The notes under the pieces are model-generated. The model saw nothing but the letters and a program-made list of their open reading frames with translations. It searched no databases and was not told the DNA's origin. A program made the position numbers and the translations under genes. From a virus: a stretch of 39,916 nt of DNA. Every line of letters begins with the position of its first letter. Within the stretch, counting starts at the first letter, position 1. Positions 1 to 39,916 of this stretch are shown piece after piece. The stretch spans positions 1 through 39,916 of IMG/VR virus record IMGVR_UViG_3300005589_000752. The stretch is one strand, 5' to 3'.

Positions 1-2601
1 ATGTCTATTGTATCCCAAGAAACTATTAACCGTCAGCTTGCCATCGAAATGGAATCAGTTCAGATAGGTGTTACCAGTTATAGGGAAGCACTTAAGAATG
101 CACGTACCAAAGGTGGCGTTGAGTCTATGAAACCTGAAGCGGCACTGATCAGGCAGTACATGAATCCTTATCTATCTGGTTTCAGAGGCGAGGTGATCCC
201 TGGTGATCGTCAAGGTCTCATTAAGTTCATCCGAGTAGGTCATGGGCGTGTCGGTGCTGGCGTTATGTCAAGAAAGTACATCAAGGATATAGACCCAATG
301 GAAGTGGCATTCATTGTGCTACGAACGGTCTTCAATTCTATCCATACACCATATGTCCCTATCCTGGGCCTGGCCAAAAAGATTGGTGCCGCAGTGAATG
401 ATCATGCTGGTTATCTAAACTTTAAGAATGTTAACCCCCAATACTTTAAGAATGTCGAGAAGTTTGTACGGATGAAGACTGATGATCAGAAAAGAATTGT
501 CATTAAGAACCGTGCGAATACCCAGGAAGCCTCCGAGTTTAAATCATGGGGTGAGAAGGCGCATAAATCCCTTGGTATGAAACTGTTGTCCATGCTCTGT
601 ACCTGCACCAACATTGGGGATAAGCAAACGATCTATCAGGGACAGGGGAAACTCCAAGGCAAGGGGACCGCTATGTTTGTACCTAATGCCGAAGTCGTTT
701 CAGCTATGGAAGATGCCCATGAGTTCCATGAGATCAGACAGCCGATGCATATGCCAATGATCATGCCCCCTATGGATTGGACAAGTGAGGTAGGAGGAGG
801 TCACCTGGGACAGGAGGTTAGTTCCCGATATAAATTGGTCGGTCGTAATTTCCAGAGCCACCGTGCTGATCCTCAGATTAGTAACCTGGAACCTATCATG
901 GAGGCTTGTAATAAACTTCAGTCAGTACCATGGGTTATCAACACCAAGATGCTCGATATTATCAAGACAATCAGAGATAACAAGGGTGGCATGGCAGGGA
1001 TCGTCCCCCTGGATAAGGACATCTTGTTCAAGGATGCCCCGGTTAAACCTTGGGCTACCGACGAAGAGATGGAGAACATTAAGACAACCAACTATGACCT
1101 TTATAAGAAGACCATGCGCCCATACATGCTGAGACATGAGGCATGGGCACGTAATGTATCTAAACGATCCAGTCTCGCCAAACAGATTATGATCGCTGAA
1201 AGATATCTGAACGAAGAGGCTATGTACTTCTGTTACACTGCGGAATGGAGAGGTCGCATCAACTGTAAGCAGAGCCATGTGTCACCACAAGCAAATGATA
1301 CAGGCAAATCTCTCATCATGCTTAAGAATGGTCTACCGATTGGCAACGATCCCCTTGCTCATTCATGGTTTAAACGCCAAGGTGCAGGATGTTTTGCAGA
1401 GCAGACCCCTGAGATTGACAAGGCCGCAGACAAGTTGACTTATACTGAACGTGAGGCATGGGTTGATCGTCATGCGGCTGAGATCTGTGCAGATGCGATT
1501 AATCCTTGGAGACCGAATGCCCTTTGGTTACAGGCAGATAAGTGTCTGACCTACCTTGCTTGGACATTTGAGTATGCCGCATGGGTTGAGTCAGGTTACA
1601 GCCCTGAGTTCGTTAACCATATCCCTTCAGCCCAGGATGGTTCATGCTCAGGCCTCCAGCATATTTCTGGTATGCTTAAGGATGAAGTCTGTGCAGTCGA
1701 AGTCAACCTTACGTCCCTAACTCTACCGAAAGACATCTATGGTAAAGTTGCAGAGGTAGGTATTCCTATGATTGAACTGGATGCCCAAGCTGGTAACTTA
1801 TATGCCAAAGCATGGTTAGGTAAGATGGATCGTGGGGTTACCAAGGCGGCGGTCATGACTTTTGTTTATGGTGCCAAGGAACGGACCAATGTTAAACAAC
1901 TCCTTGAACTGCTACAGAAGTATGAGGATAAGGGTAAGGTTCTGATATCCATTGACCAGGACGAGAAGTTTAAAGCCTGTTGTTATATGAAGGATATAAT
2001 CTCCAAGGCAATGCGTCTGGTTATAGTCAAGGGTACTCAGTTCATGGATTGGATGCAGGAGGTCGCTAAACTTTTCGGTAAAGCTGATGCTCCTATGATG
2101 TGGACAACACCTGATGGTGTACAGATCGTCATGTCCTACCGTGAACAAGATCTCAAACAGATCAATACATATTGGGGAGGCACCCGATTCTCTCCCCGTA
2201 ATTACCAAAGCAATAAATCCAAGATTGCAAATGGCCGTATGAAGAATGGGATCGCCGCTAATTATATCCACAGTTATGATGCATGTCATCTCAGGACTGT
2301 GATCAATGAGTTTGGTAGAGCAGGCCTCAATCTTCTGGATGGTGAGACCCCGGACCCGAATTATGTTGTTGGTCCTCGTGATATCGTGGTTATCCATGAC
2401 TCCTTTGCCGCACTGCCATGTGTATCTGCGGAATTACATCGGACTCTCCAGCGTACATTCATGGAACTATATAGCAACGATCAGATCGCAAGGTTCATCA
2501 GTGAGATCCAGCCCCTCATTGAGGAAGAGATTCCTGCGCCCCCCTGTCCTGGTACTTGGAACCCCTCTGAGATGCTACAGGCAGATTATTCTTTTGGCTA
2601 A
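1..2601 (+). CDS. T7-like single-subunit DNA-dependent RNA polymerase (gp1-like)
   Basis: An 866-aa protein, close to T7 RNA polymerase (883 aa), that would transcribe the middle and late phage genes from phage-specific promoters. All catalytic landmarks of the family are visible: QDGSCSGLQH with the first metal Asp at D546 (T7 D537), VTKAAVMTFVYG with K615 and Y623 (T7 K631 and Y639), and VVIHDSF with H799 and D800 (T7 H811 and D812). The protein ends DYSFG, resembling the aromatic C-terminal foot of T7 polymerase. The start codon is the first base of the window, and if the molecule is circular it directly follows the integrase stop codon, so the ribosome binding site would lie inside the integrase gene; no good Shine-Dalgarno is seen there. 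A terminator follows the gene. Confidence 0.97.
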   Translation: MSIVSQETINRQLAIEMESVQIGVTSYREALKNARTKGGVESMKPEAALIRQYMNPYLSGFRGEVIPGDRQGLIKFIRVGHGRVGAGVMSRKYIKDIDPMEVAFIVLRTVFNSIHTPYVPILGLAKKIGAAVNDHAGYLNFKNVNPQYFKNVEKFVRMKTDDQKRIVIKNRANTQEASEFKSWGEKAHKSLGMKLLSMLCTCTNIGDKQTIYQGQGKLQGKGTAMFVPNAEVVSAMEDAHEFHEIRQPMHMPMIMPPMDWTSEVGGGHLGQEVSSRYKLVGRNFQSHRADPQISNLEPIMEACNKLQSVPWVINTKMLDIIKTIRDNKGGMAGIVPLDKDILFKDAPVKPWATDEEMENIKTTNYDLYKKTMRPYMLRHEAWARNVSKRSSLAKQIMIAERYLNEEAMYFCYTAEWRGRINCKQSHVSPQANDTGKSLIMLKNGLPIGNDPLAHSWFKRQGAGCFAEQTPEIDKAADKLTYTEREAWVDRHAAEICADAINPWRPNALWLQADKCLTYLAWTFEYAAWVESGYSPEFVNHIPSAQDGSCSGLQHISGMLKDEVCAVEVNLTSLTLPKDIYGKVAEVGIPMIELDAQAGNLYAKAWLGKMDRGVTKAAVMTFVYGAKERTNVKQLLELLQKYEDKGKVLISIDQDEKFKACCYMKDIISKAMRLVIVKGTQFMDWMQEVAKLFGKADAPMMWTTPDGVQIVMSYREQDLKQINTYWGGTRFSPRNYQSNKSKIANGRMKNGIAANYIHSYDACHLRTVINEFGRAGLNLLDGETPDPNYVVGPRDIVVIHDSFAALPCVSAELHRTLQRTFMELYSNDQIARFISEIQPLIEEEIPAPPCPGTWNPSEMLQADYSFG

Positions 2602-3615: not shown

Positions 3616-4044
3616 TTGAGTGGATACGCACGGCGATTCTTCCCTAATAAGAAACAACGGGATGCAATGGCACCGTACCGTTCTATGTTTGAGAAACACA
3701 TGGCTCAGAACCTGATGCATCGTGGCATTGGGTTCGACTATGAGACTGAATCCCTTCCCTATACCGTCCCGGCAATATCCAAAAGATACACACCTGATTT
3801 CATCGTGAAGACAAGAACAGGTCGTAAGATCTACGTGGAAGCCAAGGGTCTGTTTGAACCAGCGGATAGGAAGAAGGCGCTTCTGGTAAGGGATGCAAAC
3901 CCCCATGCAGATGTGAGGTTCGTGTTCATGAATGCCAGTAATAAACTCAGTGCCAGTAGCAAGACCACCTATAGCAATTGGTGTGAGAAGAATGGGTTCA
4001 TGTGGGCAGAGAAATTTGTCCCTGAAATCTGGATGAACGAATAG
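3616..4044 (+). CDS. Endonuclease I / Holliday junction resolvase (T7 gp3-like)
   Basis: A 142-aa homologue of T7 endonuclease I (149 aa), which resolves branched DNA and helps degrade host DNA. The catalytic constellation is present: E26, D61 in RYTPDF, and E75 and K77 in VEAKG, matching T7 E20, D55, E65 and K67. The start is TTG, chosen because MSGYARR aligns with the T7 N-terminus MAGYGAKG. No strong ribosome site is seen, so expression probably depends on coupling to SSB, whose stop is three bases upstream. An internal ATG at codon 18 would keep the active site but lose the family's N-terminus. Confidence 0.93.
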   Translation: MSGYARRFFPNKKQRDAMAPYRSMFEKHMAQNLMHRGIGFDYETESLPYTVPAISKRYTPDFIVKTRTGRKIYVEAKGLFEPADRKKALLVRDANPHADVRFVFMNASNKLSASSKTTYSNWCEKNGFMWAEKFVPEIWMNE

Positions 4045-4071
4045 TTGGATCATGTTGATCTGACTTAATGA

Positions 4072-4101
4072 ATAGCCCCTTGGGTCAAACCTTGGGGCTA
4101 T
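4072..4101 (+). terminator. Intergenic hairpin before the BRO gene
   Basis: ATAGCCCC at 4072-4079 pairs perfectly with GGGGCTAT at 4094-4101. The downstream sequence CCCTATTT is a poor U tract, so this may be a weak terminator, an attenuator or an RNA processing site rather than a strong stop. Confidence 0.5.
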
Positions 4102-4121
4102 CCCTATTTAAGGAGATCGAT

Positions 4122-4943
4122 ATGAACGACCTGCAAGTATTTAAGTATGACTTCTCGCCTGAGTATTTTGGACAACCTGCTGACATGGATATTCGTGTGG
4201 TGGAGGTCGAAGGGAATCCTTGGTTTGTAGCGAAGGATGTAGCGTTGGTTTTGGGCTATGTGAATACCGCAGATGCAATACGCAAGTTCTGTAAACGTGC
4301 TGAATCATTGAAAGAACTACAAGGGGTGAGCGGATCACGCACCCTTAGTTTACAGCCAGCCACTAAACTCATACCTGAATCAGATTTATATCGTCTGGTC
4401 ATGAGATCCAACATGGAGGAGGCCGAACGATTCCAAGATTGGGTTTGCTCCGAGGTCTTGCCCACCATTCGTAAAACCGGGGGCACCTACATGACGGATG
4501 ATCACGCTGAACAGGTACTGCTCGATCCTGACTTCATCATAAAGATGGCTAACCAGATCAAGACGATCCGGGCCGAGCGTGATGAAGCCATACGTACCAA
4601 AGCCCTTGTTAGTAAAGGACGTGAAGGAACTCTCCTGAGTAAATGCGGAACACTCACCAAGAAGGTTAAACAACTTGAAGAGAAGTATGAGTCCTCAGAG
4701 TTTCTGACCACCAGATCAATCGACTGGTTGGGCCAGTTCTTCAAAACCCATAAGACAAAGCACGTCCACCTATTGATAGGTCAAGACCTCAAACAAATCA
4801 GTGATCGTTACAGTCTACCCTACCATAAAATACCGGGTGGAGCATATCCCATCACTCAGTGGCATCGTGATGCTATCGCTATATGGAAAGCCCAGATTGA
4901 ACGAGCAAACCTGCGTCCTAAACTCGCCGTCTATTTAAAATAA
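4122..4943 (+). CDS. BRO-family phage antirepressor
   Basis: A 273-aa protein. Residues about 15-125 form a Bro-N domain: NPWFVAKDVALVLGY, then ESDLYRLVMRS and DWVCSEVLPTIRKTGGTY are the classic blocks. Bro-N proteins of temperate phages include antirepressors that inactivate a repressor or bind DNA. The C-terminal part (about 150-273) has a helical linker and a domain ending near ITQWHRDAIAIWKAQ that resembles other phage antirepressor C-termini but is not firmly identified. The ATG at 4122 has AAGGAG 8 bases upstream; an in-frame ATG at 4068 sits before the hairpin and is less likely. Its place inside the replication block is unusual for T7-like phages and fits a phage with a lysogeny option. 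Confidence 0.85.
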   Translation: MNDLQVFKYDFSPEYFGQPADMDIRVVEVEGNPWFVAKDVALVLGYVNTADAIRKFCKRAESLKELQGVSGSRTLSLQPATKLIPESDLYRLVMRSNMEEAERFQDWVCSEVLPTIRKTGGTYMTDDHAEQVLLDPDFIIKMANQIKTIRAERDEAIRTKALVSKGREGTLLSKCGTLTKKVKQLEEKYESSEFLTTRSIDWLGQFFKTHKTKHVHLLIGQDLKQISDRYSLPYHKIPGGAYPITQWHRDAIAIWKAQIERANLRPKLAVYLK

Positions 4944-14986: not shown

Positions 14987-15010
14987 ACCTGAGAGGACGT
15001 CTACACAGAG
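14987..15010 (+). promoter_or_regulatory. Candidate phage promoter ahead of the morphogenesis block
   Basis: This 24-base sequence (starting ACCTGAGAGGACG, ending TACACAGAG) is repeated exactly at 33509-33532, and its 13-base centre occurs at 2739-2751. All three copies are intergenic, point the same way, and sit where a T7-like phage needs promoters. It is the best evidence for this polymerase's recognition sequence. Confidence 0.75.
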
Positions 15011-33508: not shown

Positions 33509-33532
33509 ACCTGAGAGGACGTCTACACAGAG
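33509..33532 (+). promoter_or_regulatory. Candidate phage promoter upstream of the tRNA genes
   Basis: Exact 24-base copy of 14987-15010, 19 bases after the terminase stop. It would transcribe the tRNA pair and read toward the inferred genome end. Just downstream, TAACATAGTGTCA and TAACATTGTGTCC (33546-33571) form a short tandem repeat. Confidence 0.75.
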
Positions 33533-33740: not shown

Positions 33741-33817
33741 GTGACGGCGTTGCTGACTGGTAGAAGCATCCCTGGCTGTGACCCAGGTCATAGGGTTCGA
33801 TTCCCTCCGTCACCCCA
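33741..33817 (+). tRNA. tRNA-His (anticodon GTG)
   Basis: A cloverleaf can be drawn by eye. The acceptor stem is GTGACGG/CCGTCAC (seven perfect pairs), the D stem has three pairs (TGC/GCA) with GG in its loop, the anticodon stem is CCTGG/CCAGG with loop CTGTGAC, and the T arm is AGGG-TTCGATT-CCCT. Discriminator C and an encoded CCA follow (33814-33817), as in bacterial tRNA-His. Oddities: the T stem has only four pairs, base 8 is not T, and the base before position 1 is T rather than the G expected for histidine tRNAs. It may be functional but atypical. Confidence 0.65.
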
Positions 33818-33898
33818 TGACAATCATTGGCGAGATAAGCTGGCTGTAAACCAGTGGTCATTGCGGCTGCCGAGGTTCGACTCCTTCTCCTGGGGCCA
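33814..33898 (+). tRNA. tRNA-Tyr-like (anticodon GTA), overlapping tRNA-His
   Basis: The anticodon arm GCTGG-CTGTAAA-CCAGT (33839-33855) reads GTA. A variable region of about 16 bases (33856-33871) fits the long variable arm of bacterial tRNA-Tyr. The T arm is around GAGG-TTCGACT-CCTT, and the 3' end TCCTGGGG is followed by CCA. The only acceptor partner is CCCATGA at 33814-33820 (six of seven pairs), which uses the discriminator and CCA bases of tRNA-His. The D stem is short. The gene is either overlapping or degenerate. Confidence 0.5.
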
Positions 33899-35170: not shown

Positions 35171-35183
35171 AAGAAGTTTTGAA

Positions 35184-35212
35184 ACCTTTAATCTACCAGA
35201 CGACATTACACT
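35184..35212 (+). promoter_or_regulatory. Candidate phage promoter upstream of the first early gene
   Basis: ACCTTTAATCTACCAGACG followed by ACATTACACTT is aligned base for base with the capsid promoter candidate at 17987-18017 except for a few positions. T7 has a phage promoter (phi-OL) near its left end, so the position fits. Confidence 0.6.
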
Positions 35213-35226
35213 TAGGAGCAACAACG

Positions 35227-35913
35227 ATGAAAACATACACAAAAAGTGAACTCATTCAGGCGATCATAGAAGCACCGACAACTAAAACACGCAAGGTAGG
35301 AAACTACATCAAGACCGAGACCACAGGTGAAGAGACCATGACGTTATCCCTTGGCAATGGCAAACTCAGCCATGATATCCTGATCTGGAACATGCCGACC
35401 GTCAAAACATGCCCCAATTGTGAAGAGTGTCAAAAAACATGCTACGCCATGAAAGCAGAAAAACTATATCCATCGGTCATGCCCTGCCGTGAGCGCAATT
35501 ATCAAGCATCCCTAAGCGATAAATTCACCGATCGAATGACCTGGACCATCGTTCAAAGCGTTAACAAGTATGGAGTCAAGGCGGTCCGTGTGCATGAATC
35601 TGGCGATTTCTACTCCAATGAGTACGCCATGAAATGGGCAATCATCGCAAAGCGTGTACACCGGGTTTTACCGGACGTGATCTTCTTCGCCTACACCAAG
35701 TCACCATATCGCCCGATCTACGGGTTCAACATCGTTGAGAGCATCCTGCCCGGCGGCGAGATCAACTATGGCACCCACACCGAGATCATCGCAATGGCTA
35801 AGAAATATCGGGCTAAAATCTGCCCGTATGGGATCGCCAAGCGTACCTTGACATGCGGCATCGAGTGTAAAGCCTGCCAGCATCACAAGCATGTGGTCTT
35901 CATCCAGCATTAA
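35227..35913 (+). CDS. GP88-like cysteine-rich early protein
   Basis: A 228-aa protein resembling the phage 'gene product 88' family. A cluster CPNCEECQKTCYAMKAEK lies at about residues 62-79, a CRERNYQ follows, then RVHESGDFYS and a C-terminal CGIECKAC group. Eight or more cysteines suggest one or two metal or iron-sulphur sites. No biochemical function is established for the family that I can cite. AGGAG is 8-9 bases before the ATG; an in-frame ATG at 35179 lies before the phage promoter and is unlikely. It is the first gene in the early block, where T7 keeps host-takeover genes. Confidence 0.75.
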   Translation: MKTYTKSELIQAIIEAPTTKTRKVGNYIKTETTGEETMTLSLGNGKLSHDILIWNMPTVKTCPNCEECQKTCYAMKAEKLYPSVMPCRERNYQASLSDKFTDRMTWTIVQSVNKYGVKAVRVHESGDFYSNEYAMKWAIIAKRVHRVLPDVIFFAYTKSPYRPIYGFNIVESILPGGEINYGTHTEIIAMAKKYRAKICPYGIAKRTLTCGIECKACQHHKHVVFIQH

Positions 35914-36793: not shown

Positions 36794-37006
36794 ATGAAAG
36801 CGAAAACAGTCAACAGTGTAGTCATGAGCGCAATCATTGCGAAATTACAGGAACTTAAAGCCGATCCAACAGAGTGTGTCAGAGTCCTTAAGGATACAGC
36901 CGTGGACCTGGGGTATGAACCTGATGCCCTGGATGATGATCTGTCCTATGGTCTGTATCGGATGGAATACTGGCTGAACACACTCATTGATTACCTGGCA
37001 GATTAA
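36794..37006 (+). CDS. Small helical early protein (70 aa)
   Basis: A 70-aa protein (MKAKTVNSVVMSAIIAKLQE) with predicted helices and an acidic C-terminal half (DALDDDLSYGLYRMEYWL). AAGGGG lies about 10 bases before this ATG; an in-frame ATG at 36785 would overlap the preceding gene. Unknown function. Confidence 0.65.
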   Translation: MKAKTVNSVVMSAIIAKLQELKADPTECVRVLKDTAVDLGYEPDALDDDLSYGLYRMEYWLNTLIDYLAD

Positions 37007-37020
37007 CCATGGAGACAACA

Positions 37021-37434
37021 ATGACAACGCCGCCACCAGCCTGGATGCGAATCGATGGACCAACACCTGGGCCTACTAAGATCCAACACACCAACCAGCA
37101 CTACACCCTGACCTCTTATCCCTGCGGTCACTTTTACATGAAGATCACCGGGACAAAACGTGCCCACAAGATTAAGGCCAGGAAATATGCCTACATGCTC
37201 AAACAGCACCATGAAAACCGATATCAGAACAGCCTACCCTACGTCACGGTCACCCATAAAACCACAGGCAAAGCGTTCTGCCTCAATAGGAATTACCAAC
37301 TGATCGCCACCCGATACTGCGCCCATATGGTGCAACAATGGGACAAATGGGCACCAACCATGGATAGTCAACGCCCAGCCTGGGCACAAGGTCTTTTCGA
37401 CAGCGAATTTCACGCCGTATGGCATTACAAATAA
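37021..37434 (+). CDS. Basic early protein (137 aa)
   Basis: A 137-aa basic protein with many aromatic and histidine residues (SYPCGHFYMKITGTKRAHKI, KARKYAYMLKQHHENRYQN). The ATG at 37021 has GGAG 7 bases upstream and is preferred over the in-frame ATG at 37009, which has none. Could bind nucleic acid from its charge; no family recognised. Confidence 0.7.
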   Translation: MTTPPPAWMRIDGPTPGPTKIQHTNQHYTLTSYPCGHFYMKITGTKRAHKIKARKYAYMLKQHHENRYQNSLPYVTVTHKTTGKAFCLNRNYQLIATRYCAHMVQQWDKWAPTMDSQRPAWAQGLFDSEFHAVWHYK

Positions 37435-37443
37435 GGAAACAAT

Positions 37444-37530
37444 ATGATCAATTTAATCATCGTAGTAACCGTGACGATCTTCACCGCAATGGCAATCGTA
37501 CCTTTACTGGAGAAACCAAATGACCTGTAA
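37444..37530 (+). CDS. Single-helix membrane micropeptide (28 aa)
   Basis: A 28-aa peptide that is one hydrophobic helix with a short polar tail (MINLIIVVTVTIFTAMAIVP). AAGGAA is well placed before its ATG. It overlaps the next gene by 11 bp. It probably sits in the inner membrane; the start signal and composition make it a credible small gene. Confidence 0.65.
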   Translation: MINLIIVVTVTIFTAMAIVPLLEKPNDL

Positions 37531-37789
37531 AATCATAGGTAAAATCGACACGTTGCCTCAGTCCTGGGAATGTATCACCTTTGGTCCAGTCACCCTGGAC
37601 ACCTGGATAGACAGTATGTTCACTGCCCACGATGAATGTGCCAGCCATTGGTGTTATTACAACTGGGTTTATCTGGTGGTCCACACCCTTAAGGAACATG
37701 GCGTACCGGCCCCAAAGAAAGGAGCGTTACCCTTCAAGGATTATTCCCTGGTGCTGGTTAATACGCTGGCCCACATGATAGAGGCTTGA
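37520..37789 (+). CDS. Small early protein (89 aa)
   Basis: An 89-aa protein (MTCKIIGKIDTLPQSWECIT) with cysteines at several positions (ECASHWCYYNW) and a moderately hydrophobic centre (WVYLVVHTL). GGAG is well placed before the ATG. Its stop lies within the -35 region of the promoter that follows. Unrecognised. Confidence 0.7.
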   Translation: MTCKIIGKIDTLPQSWECITFGPVTLDTWIDSMFTAHDECASHWCYYNWVYLVVHTLKEHGVPAPKKGALPFKDYSLVLVNTLAHMIEA

Positions 37790-37814
37790 CGAGGACAGGC
37801 AGGGCTAATATATA
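37786..37814 (+). promoter_or_regulatory. Strong sigma70-type promoter
   Basis: TTGACG (37786-37791), a 17-base spacer and TATATA (37809-37814). The predicted start near 37821 is just before a gene with a GGAGG ribosome site. It would transcribe the 37835 gene, the structured-RNA leader, the regulator, the integrase and, across the circle junction, the RNA polymerase. Confidence 0.75.
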
Positions 37815-37834
37815 CCTTTCTATGGAGGCACATT

Positions 37835-38041
37835 ATGGTAGTATTTAGCAAGAGGGTTATCGAAATGAGTATACATCGGCTGCTCGAATTGCAGATCCAG
37901 CTTGTGTCCCAAGCATCCGTCGCCACAAAACCTGGATGTAAGGCCCGCTTCATGGGCATGGCTAATATAACCGCTGAACTGCGAGGTGCATTGATTGAAG
38001 AGCAACGTAGGGTCTACCCCGATAAAGATACCACTCTGTAA
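37835..38041 (+). CDS. Small protein downstream of the host-type promoter
   Basis: A 68-aa helical protein (MVVFSKRVIEMSIHRLLELQ) with GGAGG 6 bases before its ATG, giving a short 5' leader from the promoter at 37786. It is basic in the middle (KPGCKARFMG) and ends acidic. Position at the head of the lysogeny/polymerase transcript makes it a candidate regulator, but no DNA-binding motif is obvious. Confidence 0.7.
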   Translation: MVVFSKRVIEMSIHRLLELQIQLVSQASVATKPGCKARFMGMANITAELRGALIEEQRRVYPDKDTTL

Positions 38042-38087
38042 CATCAGGGAAACCCTTAGCCCGATCCACGTACGGCATTTACACACT

Positions 38088-38101
38088 ATATGTTGACATA
38101 T
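38088..38101. promoter_or_regulatory. Palindrome in AT-rich leader DNA
   Basis: ATATGT-TG-ACATAT is a perfect 6-bp inverted repeat overlapping a TTGACA-like box (38093-38098). It could be an operator; no matching -10 is seen at the usual distance. Confidence 0.35.
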
Positions 38102-38123
38102 CAATTATATTTAGGCACCCTGA

Positions 38124-38209
38124 GCGACCTTTCAAACAGCGCCAAACTCATCGAGAGGTGAGGACGGAAAGACACTCATCCTGGGATAGACTCAGGACCG
38201 GAGGTCTGC
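38124..38209 (+). ncRNA. Candidate structured RNA (three-way junction leader)
   Basis: The 262-base gap between genes can fold into a junction. P1 is GCGACC (38124-38129) with GGTCTGC (38203-38209, one bulged T). P2 is CTCATC/GGTGAG (38147-38152 with 38157-38162), capped by a GAGA tetraloop. P3 is TCCTG/CAGGA (38179-38183 with 38193-38197). The purine-rich joint GACGGAAAGACAC follows P2. A ribosome site GGAGG (38200-38204) is partly inside P1, and its GGTC can alternatively pair with GACC at 38196-38199. AAAC, a GNRA-capped stem and GGACGNAAAG recall the c-di-GMP-I riboswitch, but a pairing needed in that class is not preserved. Confidence 0.35.
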
Positions 38210-38212
38210 AAT

Positions 38213-38266
38213 GTGAAAACGGCACTTAAATATTGGCAACAATTAAAGGAGGCACCGCATTGTTAA
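38213..38266 (+). CDS. Possible 17-aa leader peptide
   Basis: GTG start 8 bases after GGAGG, encoding MKTALKYWQQLKEAPHC. It directly follows the structured element, and the out-of-frame ATG at 38211 is followed at once by TGA. Within it lies AAAGGAGG (38245-38252), a strong ribosome site whose nearest start would be TTG at 38260 (28 codons) or ATT at 38259, not an ATG. It could be a regulatory leader peptide. Confidence 0.35.
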   Translation: MKTALKYWQQLKEAPHC

Positions 38267-38303
38267 CAACTTACTACACTATTAAACTGAAGGACACTAC
38301 CAT

Positions 38304-38543
38304 ATGGAAGTCAAAATACAGATCGACAACAATACTCTTGTGCTGATTGAAGATGGGTGCTATGTACATACGCTATCAAATGACGAGGACATCCTGACAT
38401 TGTGGGATGATCTTCCCCAATACATGCTGGTTCGTGTTGAGCTAATGCTACGCTACGCACGGACAGTGACACCTGACTACTTAAGGAGTGATAACCATGA
38501 GCCTCAAAAATCTTGGAACTGTGATCGAGTGGATACGCAATAA
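38304..38543 (+). CDS. Small acidic protein ahead of the regulator
   Basis: A 79-aa acidic protein (MEVKIQIDNNTLVLIEDGCY) with AAGGA about 10 bases before the ATG. It overlaps the wHTH regulator gene by 47 bp in another frame, an unusually long overlap. Candidates include an excision or antirepression partner, but there is no supporting motif. Confidence 0.65.
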   Translation: MEVKIQIDNNTLVLIEDGCYVHTLSNDEDILTLWDDLPQYMLVRVELMLRYARTVTPDYLRSDNHEPQKSWNCDRVDTQ

Positions 38544-38832
38544 CCTGGACCCCGAAATAAACATCCAAAAGATCGACTTGTTAATTAAGGTATCCCAGAA
38601 TGAGGGTATAGGACAGCAAGACCTGGGCAAACTGAGTAACTTAGCATCGGGCAGTGTGTCCAGGCACCTCATGAAGTTGGGCACCTATTATGATAGAAAA
38701 GCAGAGCGTGAGATGGGACTGGGACTGATCATTCAGACCCCCAACCCTATGAATAGAAGACAAATGTCCGTGTACATGAGCACCAAGGGCAAACAAACCA
38801 TGCAAATATTAGAGGGGATATTAGATGCTTAA
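38497..38832 (+). CDS. Winged helix-turn-helix regulator (MarR-like)
   Basis: A 111-aa protein with the MarR layout: a helical N-terminus, then IDLLIKVSQNEGIGQQDLGK and LSNLASGSVSRHLMKLG as the helix-turn-helix, a wing around NPMNRRQMSVYMSTKGKQ, and a C-terminal helix. AAGGAG is well placed before the ATG at 38497. It overlaps the integrase gene by 8 bp, so regulator and integrase are co-expressed. It is the best candidate for a lysogeny regulator that could bind the operators near 34.87-34.91 kb. Confidence 0.8.
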   Translation: MSLKNLGTVIEWIRNNLDPEINIQKIDLLIKVSQNEGIGQQDLGKLSNLASGSVSRHLMKLGTYYDRKAEREMGLGLIIQTPNPMNRRQMSVYMSTKGKQTMQILEGILDA

Positions 38833-39916
38833 GAAGCTGGAGAAGGGTTTATATAGGTACTTTGACAGGCAAGGCCGTGAGGGTAAGATTGTTATGCAGT
38901 TCAGGTACGGAGGTTTTCGTATCAAAGAGTCTACCAATGAACATGACATTGTTGATGCCAGGAAAGTCATGCTTAAGAAGAGGCTGGAGATCGACGCATT
39001 GCAGGAGCAGATCGTTGACCTTGAGATGTTCGGTGAGGATATCAAACTGTCCGAGGCACTTGATACATTCCGTGGCAACCAATGGGCTGGAGACACCAGT
39101 CACTGCCGGGATAGCATCGCCAGGATGGAGAAGATCATTGCCTTTCTGGATGATCCAAGGTGTGTTGACCTGACCCATGGTTCAATCCGTAAGCTGAAGC
39201 AGCACTTAAGCAGCACGGACATAGGCACCGAGGACAGCCCAAGGTATCGGACCCCCACTACTGTCAATCGGTTCATGACAAGCCTTAAAACGGTACTCAA
39301 GGCAGTCATGGAGGATGGCCTGATCCCGAAGCTACCCAAGTTTGTGATGGCATCGGAGAAACAATACAGGCGTGACCGTTTGATAGCAGAGAATGAGCTA
39401 CGCATGGTCAAGGTTCTTCTATCAAGGCGTACCAGGACACAGCGATCAACCGATATGCGCCACCAAGTAGCTGATGTGTTGACCATCGCGTGGTACACCG
39501 GGATGCGGATCGGTGAGATCTTGGCTCTTCGTCCTATCCGTCACCTGGATCTGGATGGTCGATCAATTAAGATCACTGCCGACATCGCCAAGGGTAAATC
39601 AATCAGGACCGTACCCATGCATGACAAGGTGTGGAAAATCCTGAGCATGACCGTACCAAATGCCGAGGGTATCCTGTTCGACTTCGATACAAACTTTGTG
39701 GATAAGGTCTGGAGGTTTGCACGTAAAGAGATGGAGGTTGCTGATAAAAACTTCGTGCCCCATGCTATCCGACACACCGTAGCAACTGACTTATTGAAAG
39801 CTGGCGTACCCGTGACCAAGGTTCAAGCATTGCTCGGACATGAGGATGTCACAACCACTATGATCTACACCCACATGGTGGCTGAGGACGTTCGATCGGA
39901 CCTCCTTTGTCGGTAA
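38825..39916 (+). CDS. Tyrosine recombinase / integrase
   Basis: A 363-aa tyrosine integrase with the full catalytic set: R228 in TGMRIGEILAL, K256/K258 in AKGKSIR, H313-x-x-R316 in HAIRHTVATDLL, H339 in LLGHED, and the nucleophile Y348 in MIYTHM. An N-terminal arm-type region (residues 1-about 80) and core-binding helices precede the catalytic domain. GAGGGG is 8-9 bases before the ATG. The stop codon is the last base of the window. Integration of phage DNA at an attP site is expected; attP is not identified, although tRNA-derived sites are common and the tRNA region at 33.7 kb or the 38.0-38.3 kb gap are candidates. Confidence 0.95.
   Translation: MLKKLEKGLYRYFDRQGREGKIVMQFRYGGFRIKESTNEHDIVDARKVMLKKRLEIDALQEQIVDLEMFGEDIKLSEALDTFRGNQWAGDTSHCRDSIARMEKIIAFLDDPRCVDLTHGSIRKLKQHLSSTDIGTEDSPRYRTPTTVNRFMTSLKTVLKAVMEDGLIPKLPKFVMASEKQYRRDRLIAENELRMVKVLLSRRTRTQRSTDMRHQVADVLTIAWYTGMRIGEILALRPIRHLDLDGRSIKITADIAKGKSIRTVPMHDKVWKILSMTVPNAEGILFDFDTNFVDKVWRFARKEMEVADKNFVPHAIRHTVATDLLKAGVPVTKVQALLGHEDVTTTMIYTHMVAEDVRSDLLCR

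What the first reader, a model, noticed from the sequence alone, without database searches (positions are those of the whole stretch)
38088..38303. Structured RNA leader with a partly sequestered ribosome site and tiny ORFs upstream of the regulator and integrase
The gap before the regulator/integrase operon can fold as a three-way junction: P1 closes the element, P2 has a GAGA tetraloop, and a conserved-looking purine joint GACGGAAAGACAC leads to P3. A GGAGG site lies in the P1 3' strand, and its GGTC can pair with either of two GACC segments, a switch-like layout. A 17-codon GTG frame follows. Part of it resembles the c-di-GMP-I riboswitch core (AAAC, GNRA hairpin, GGACGNAAAG), but the GGC/GCC pairing of that class is not kept. 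A sensor RNA controlling a lysogeny operon in a T7-like phage would be unusual.
Basis: partly seen in the sequence, partly recalled or inferred. Interest (0 to 1): 0.8.

Follow-up and report, generated by a model that had tools for sequence, protein, structure and literature searches.

The report
c-di-GMP riboswitch before phage lysogeny genes
A virus of bacteria related to phage T7 carries, just in front of the genes it probably uses to go dormant in its host, an RNA sensor of the known c-di-GMP type, which suggests that this virus reads the host's own biofilm/motility signal when choosing how to live.

Summary
The structured leader is real. It is a c-di-GMP-I (GEMM-I) riboswitch aptamer at 38131-38213 (+): RF01051, 46.4 bits against a cut-off of 35, the only Rfam hit in the window. 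A model built from nine other aptamers without the window also finds it (50.8 bits, E 7e-9). Ligand-contact residues are kept (G20, A47, A48, C92). G at position 20 points to c-di-GMP rather than cGAMP. The aptamer precedes a 79-aa ORF, a gp0.7/MarR-like regulator and a tyrosine integrase, the conserved lysogeny module of temperate T7-like phages (P-SSP7, HTVC019P, LUZ100). None of 79 IMG/VR contigs with this regulator has such an aptamer, nor do the isolate phages examined. Most likely mechanism: translational control of the first ORF, the P1 5' strand (CUUUCA) pairing either with the P1 3' strand (ligand-bound) or with the ORF's ribosome site (free): an ON switch. That direction is inferred from folding and depends on transcript length. 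Known aptamer class, apparently undescribed use.

The parts
38131..38213 (+). c-di-GMP-I riboswitch aptamer (RF01051)
   Evidence: 46.4 bits, cut-off 35, E 4e-6; independent model without the window 50.8 bits
38141..38141 (+). G20 equivalent (ligand contact; G = c-di-GMP type)
   Evidence: residue role from PMC3764141 and PMC4744006
38142..38167 (+). P2: C142-G167, C143-G166, then CUCAUC 147-152 with GGUGAG 157-162, GAGA tetraloop 153-156
38168..38169 (+). A47, A48 equivalents in joint J2/3
   Evidence: PMC3764141
38170..38207 (+). P3: AGAC 170-173 with GUCU 204-207, CUC 175-177 with GAG 201-203, upper stem 179-185 with 191-197; bulged G38200 is the G83 equivalent that pairs with C44 (C38165)
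   Evidence: one A-C mismatch (38178/38198)
38209..38209 (+). C92 equivalent (ligand contact)
   Evidence: PMC3764141
38128..38134 (+). proposed P1 5' strand CCUUUCA; also complementary to the ribosome site at 38288-38293
   Evidence: folding with constraints; out of register with the Rfam P1, so unproven
38214..38222 (+). proposed P1 3' strand UGAAA-AC-GG
38208..38263 (+). alternative hairpin (208-215 with 256-263) that competes with P1 and the ligand pocket; holds AAAGGAGG 38245-38252
   Evidence: 0.96-0.98 in the free ensemble; z -2.0, 20 of 500 shuffles as stable
38200..38204 (+).
   Evidence: about 0.2 unpaired
38213..38266 (+). 17-codon GTG frame (and ATGTGA at 38211); coding status unknown
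38288..38294 (+). ribosome site of the 79-aa ORF (UGAAGGA), proposed target of the switch
38304..38543 (+). 79-aa ORF, first of the operon, no family
38497..38832 (+). gp0.7/MarR-like transcriptional regulator (start ATG 38497)
   Evidence: phrog_9665 E 2e-18; P-SSP7 gp0.7 and pelagiphage matches
38825..39916 (+). tyrosine integrase
   Evidence: PF00589 E 2e-26; phrog_1
1..2601 (+). T7-like RNA polymerase, next gene of the module if the genome is read as a circle
   Evidence: PF00940, phrog_414; order in relatives

Best explanation
The leader is a c-di-GMP-I riboswitch that makes expression of the phage's lysogeny operon (79-aa ORF, MarR-like regulator, integrase) depend on host c-di-GMP. Shown by computation: aptamer class, conserved ligand residues, compensated helices, position. 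Inferred: transcription by host RNA polymerase as in LUZ100, and translational control. In the proposed switch, without ligand the stretch after P3 (38208-38215) pairs with 38256-38263 and the free P1 5' strand CUUUCA (38129-38134) covers the ribosome site UGAAGG (38288-38293) of the first ORF. With c-di-GMP bound, P1 closes (38128-38134 with 38214-38222), the ribosome site is released and the operon is translated: an ON switch. My estimates: aptamer identity about 0.95, c-di-GMP as ligand about 0.85, control of this operon about 0.75, ON direction by this pairing about 0.4.
For: RF01051 above its cut-off. Model from nine other aptamers without the window finds it at 50.8 bits. 17 of 18 P2/P3 pairs standard, with three double substitutions unique to this copy plus the C142-G167 swap. 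G20, A47, A48, C92 and C44-G83 equivalents kept (roles from PMC3764141). The regulator-integrase module is conserved in temperate T7-like phages and is co-transcribed in LUZ100 (PMC10134795). Ribosome site 0.18-0.27 unpaired free against 0.61-0.78 bound for transcripts ending at or before 38310.
Against: No homologous leader was found, so P1 and the expression platform have no covariation support. The ribosome-site effect is lost in most folds ending at 38345 and all ending at 38360 or later; the bound state lies 6.4-11.3 kcal/mol above the free one before ligand energy. P1 is out of consensus register and P3 has an A-C mismatch. No host promoter was identified. The host, and whether it makes c-di-GMP, is unknown.
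Confidence: 0.72

Rival explanations
1. The aptamer works but as an OFF switch, or through transcript stability or Rho, for example by hiding the GTG/ATG starts in P1 and so changing translation of the tiny frame and the fate of the downstream message.
For: GGAGG-8nt-GTG and GGAGG-6nt-ATGTGA are well spaced starts lying in P3 and the P1 region; they are strongly paired in the free fold and partly paired in the bound one. The ON model rests on folding alone.
Against: GGAGG is in P3 in both states. The first clear ORF has its own ribosome site further down. No intrinsic terminator is present.
Confidence: 0.3
2. The ligand is another cyclic dinucleotide such as 3',3'-cGAMP (GEMM-Ib type).
For: Rare variants of this class bind c-AMP-GMP (PMC7266159); three other fetched aptamers carry A at position 20.
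Against: The window has G at position 20 (G38141), the c-di-GMP state. That A20 marks the cGAMP type rests on my own knowledge.
Confidence: 0.07
3. The aptamer is a decaying passenger picked up from a host with no regulatory role.
For: Low score for the class (46 bits against 65-87 in most others); A-C mismatch; receptor lost; absent from relatives.
Against: All tested ligand residues kept and three private double substitutions keep P3 paired, which drift would not produce; it sits exactly in the leader of the lysogeny operon.
Confidence: 0.08
4. The aptamer is an assembly artefact: host DNA joined to a phage contig.
For: Such joins seem to occur in IMG/VR: L006 looks like one.
Against: The aptamer is internal, less than 300 nt upstream of a regulator whose relatives are T7-like phages, inside a contig that is T7-like from its first gene. 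A chimera would need a join within those few hundred bases.
Confidence: 0.03

Closest known systems
c-di-GMP-I riboswitch (GEMM-I, RF01051)
   Same: aptamer architecture, ligand residues G20/A47/A48/C92, C44-G83 interhelical pair, GNRA tetraloop on P2
   Different: G21-C46 swapped to C-G, GAGA loop, no canonical tetraloop receptor in P3, P1 out of consensus register; placed on a phage lysogeny operon
c-di-GMP-I-GGC variant (RF03167)
   Same: simple P3 upper stem without the canonical receptor; the related L002 aptamer shares the C-G swap
   Different: 42.5 bits, below the cut-off of 59, so not a member by this test
MarR-integrase lysogeny module of temperate T7-like phages (P-SSP7, HTVC019P, LUZ100)
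   Same: gene order and families; in LUZ100 co-transcribed from a host promoter (PMC10134795)
   Different: no RNA family hit in front of the module in the relatives examined
Phage-borne riboswitches (glutamine riboswitch in Melnitz, psbA-linked one in a cyanophage; PMC9004378)
   Same: riboswitch carried by a phage
   Different: other ligands and targets, not a lysogeny operon
Vibriophage VP882, lysogeny affected by the c-di-GMP pool (PMC11315295)
   Same: lysis-lysogeny outcome tied to c-di-GMP
   Different: there the effector is unknown and no riboswitch is mentioned; low c-di-GMP favours lysogeny

Membership tests
c-di-GMP-I riboswitch (RF01051) | covariance-model score above the curated cut-off | tested here: met
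   46.4 bits, cut-off 35
c-di-GMP-I riboswitch (RF01051) | ligand-contact residues G20, A47, A48, C92 | tested here: met
   G38141, A38168, A38169, C38209 (roles)
c-di-GMP-I riboswitch (RF01051) | P2 and P3 helices and the C44-G83 interhelical pair | tested here: met
   17 of 18 P2/P3 pairs standard; C38165 and G38200
c-di-GMP-I riboswitch (RF01051) | GNRA tetraloop docked in a P3 receptor | tested here: inconclusive
   GAGA loop present; canonical receptor sequence absent, plain C-G-rich stem instead; docking not testable here
c-di-GMP-I riboswitch (RF01051) | P1 helix | tested here: inconclusive
   consensus register unpaired; alternative P1 of 5+2 pairs possible, no homologues to test it
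c-di-GMP-I riboswitch (RF01051) | binds c-di-GMP and controls expression | not testable with these tools
   needs in-line probing and reporter assays
c-di-GMP-I-GGC (RF03167) | score above the curated cut-off | tested here: not met
   42.5 bits, cut-off 59
cGAMP (GEMM-Ib) riboswitch | A at Vc2 position 20 | tested here: not met
   G38141; the rule itself is from my own knowledge
temperate T7-like lysogeny module (gp0.7/MarR-integrase) | MarR-like gp0.7 directly before a tyrosine integrase, next to a T7-like RNA polymerase gene | tested here: met
   adjacency to the RNA polymerase gene is by circular order, because the record ends at the integrase

The most novel reading that the evidence does not exclude
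A temperate T7-like phage gates its MarR regulator and integrase with its own c-di-GMP-sensing RNA, so that the lysis-lysogeny choice is wired directly to the host's motile/sessile second messenger without any protein sensor.
Probability: 0.6. Interest if true: 0.82.

Novelty: new variant of a known kind. Interest (0 to 1): 0.64.

Why it matters
How temperate T7-like phages decide between lysis and lysogeny is open; the LUZ100 work proposes MarR-based control but could not obtain stable lysogens (PMC10134795). c-di-GMP is known to affect lysogeny of phage VP882 through an unknown effector (PMC11315295). A phage-borne c-di-GMP aptamer in front of regulator and integrase would give a direct, easily tested molecular link. 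Riboswitches in phages are described as rare (PMC9004378), and my literature searches found none on a lysogeny operon; the held library is open-access only, so this is weak evidence of absence.

Tried and rejected
Intrinsic-terminator control: no terminator-like site on the + strand in 37000-39916. Phage RNA polymerase promoter in front of the operon: the candidate motif is absent there, and no convincing sigma-70 site was found either. Direct relatives for covariation: the integrase and portal of the window have no close relatives in IMG/VR; the regulator's only hit, L007, looks like a chance match. A scan of bacterial genomes with the regulator profile gave two distant loci without the aptamer; one aptamer hit elsewhere in the genome of L079 was not pursued. 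In the first alignment of regulators the window row was empty because of a frame slip; one search replaces it. L008 matches the DNA pattern but is not an aptamer; L010, L011 and most of L012-L051 were judged chance matches by eye only. TTGACATATCAA at 38093 as a MarR operator: at two mismatches the motif is no more frequent than chance, so left as a suggestion.

Full report
What is there. The window is a 39,916-base virus record of a T7-like phage: RNA polymerase, gp2.5-like SSB, primase/helicase, DNA polymerase, ligase, head-tail connector, major head, tail and terminase proteins match phage families. At its right end lie a 79-aa ORF, a MarR-like regulator and a tyrosine integrase. The regulator matches P-SSP7 gp0.7 and pelagiphage MarR proteins. 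In P-SSP7, three pelagiphages, S-CBP1 and an uncultured marine phage the order is regulator, integrase, RNA polymerase; in Pseudomonas phage LUZ100 it is the same with a tRNA gene between regulator and integrase. The window starts at the RNA polymerase start codon and ends at the integrase stop codon, so it carries the same module opened at the integrase/RNA polymerase junction, where an integrated prophage would probably be cut (inference).

The RNA. Rfam finds one RNA family above its cut-off in the whole window: c-di-GMP-I (RF01051) at 38131-38213 (+), 46.4 bits against a gathering score of 35, E 4e-6 over 4227 families. In the single-family search E is 1e-9. To avoid relying on one model I collected c-di-GMP-I aptamers from IMG/VR by DNA pattern, built a covariance model from nine of them without the window and searched: the window scores 50.8 bits, E 7e-9. 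The free minimum-energy fold of the leader contains the family's P2 and P3. The core folds better than shuffles (z -2.9; 98-nt windows elsewhere in the genome average 0.0, sd 1.0).

Pairs and ligand residues. On 11 aptamers, 95.1% of cells form standard pairs against 22-42% with partners slid by 1-3 columns; the covariation score is 0.643 against 0.208 in shuffles, none of 500 reaching it. The alignment was fitted to that structure, so this leans towards it, and it tests the family structure. The point for this finding is how the window sits in it. It pairs at 17 of 18 P2/P3 positions (read from the rows). Three pairs reach that through double substitutions seen in no other sequence of the set: A38172-U38205, U38176-A38202 and C38177-G38201. 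Residues described as required for ligand recognition are G20, C92, A47 and A48, with the C44-G83 interhelical pair (PMC3764141; PMC4744006); all are present. G at 20 argues for c-di-GMP; three other fetched aptamers carry A there. Departures from the class: an A-C mismatch in P3, no canonical tetraloop receptor, and a P1 out of consensus register. It does not qualify for the GGC variant RF03167 (42.5 bits, cut-off 59).

How it may work. The leader has no intrinsic terminator, so translation is the more likely target. Two pairings exclude each other. CUUUCA (38129-38134), the P1 5' strand, can pair with UGAAA (38214-38218) to close P1, or with UGAAGG (38288-38293), the ribosome site of the 79-aa ORF. 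GCAAUGUG (38208-38215), which holds C92, can join P1 and the pocket or pair with 38256-38263. For transcripts ending at or before 38310 the ribosome site is 0.18-0.27 unpaired in the free ensemble and 0.61-0.78 when aptamer and P1 are enforced. This predicts an ON switch. It is a weak prediction: a second UUGAAG further down (38347-38352) competes, and the effect is gone in most folds ending at 38345 and in all ending at 38360 or later. The bound state is 6.4-11.3 kcal/mol above the free state before any ligand energy. A complement of this length arises in 3% of shuffles of the spacer.

What it would do. In LUZ100 the MarR-like regulator and integrase are co-transcribed from a host promoter and proposed to govern lysogeny (PMC10134795). 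No copy of the candidate phage promoter motif lies before the window's operon, consistent with transcription by the host, although no clear sigma-70 site was found. So the aptamer is placed to tie lysogeny functions to c-di-GMP. The sign cannot be taken from other systems: in VP882 low c-di-GMP favours lysogeny on surfaces (PMC11315295), whereas an ON switch here would favour regulator and integrase at high c-di-GMP.

How unusual. The regulator profile found 79 IMG/VR contigs with the same kind of regulator. None has a c-di-GMP-I aptamer, by the Rfam model over whole records or by model R1 over the fetched regions, nor do the isolate phage regions examined. These relatives are distant (regulator 25-35% identical), so closer relatives may yet carry it. 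Of the ten other virus-record aptamers whose downstream ORF was scanned, seven precede what look like ordinary bacterial genes (response regulators, a sigma-54 activator, an HD-domain protein, secreted or adhesive proteins), two precede ORFs without a family, and one, L006, seems to be a chimera. Integrases in those records, where present, are not downstream neighbours of the aptamer, and none has a T7-like RNA polymerase hit (where the control genomes also rang nowhere). PMC9004378 calls riboswitches rare in phages. My open-access searches found no riboswitch on a phage lysogeny operon.

Verdict. The RNA is an ordinary class in an extraordinary place: a divergent but well-preserved c-di-GMP-I aptamer, so far seen in only one temperate T7-like phage. 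Identity is firm, ligand likely, control of the operon probable, direction and mechanism open.

Noticed in passing
L006 (IMGVR_UViG_3300035570_000616), 3959-4198 on the - strand: An RNA-phage contig (maturation protein, replicase-like 594-aa ORF) begins with about 240 AT-rich bases (27-42% GC against 55%) holding a near-perfect c-di-GMP-I aptamer (85.6 bits) and a terminator-like hairpin with a T run, just before the GGGGGG expected near a levivirus 5' end. None of 80 relatives has it, so it is probably a chimera of a bacterial leader and an RNA phage.
   Followed up: partly
window 14989-15010 and 33511-33532 (13-nt core also at 2739-2751): Exact repeat CTGAGAGGACGTCTACACAGAG in gaps between genes, none in 100 shuffles; candidate promoter of the phage's own RNA polymerase. 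Absent in front of the lysogeny operon.
   Followed up: partly
window 33743-33898: tRNA-His and tRNA-Tyr genes predicted back to back, overlapping by 3 bases.
   Followed up: no
window 38093-38104: TTGACATATCAA, an inverted repeat TTGA-N4-TCAA 38 nt before the aptamer; it could be an operator of the MarR-like regulator, but the motif is not rarer than chance.
   Followed up: partly
L009 1133-1254 (IMGVR_UViG_3300017971_000480, 39,928 bases): c-di-GMP-I aptamer with a long insert in P3 and the same C-G swap as the window; followed by a 78-aa ORF without a family, and no integrase hit in the record.
   Followed up: partly
L004, L019, L030 aptamers: These carry A at Vc2 position 20, which by my own knowledge marks the cGAMP-sensing type.
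   Followed up: no
window 35179-35913: A GP88 family protein (PF17338) has weak relatives upstream of the regulator in three T7-like contigs, L080, L082 and L086.
   Followed up: no
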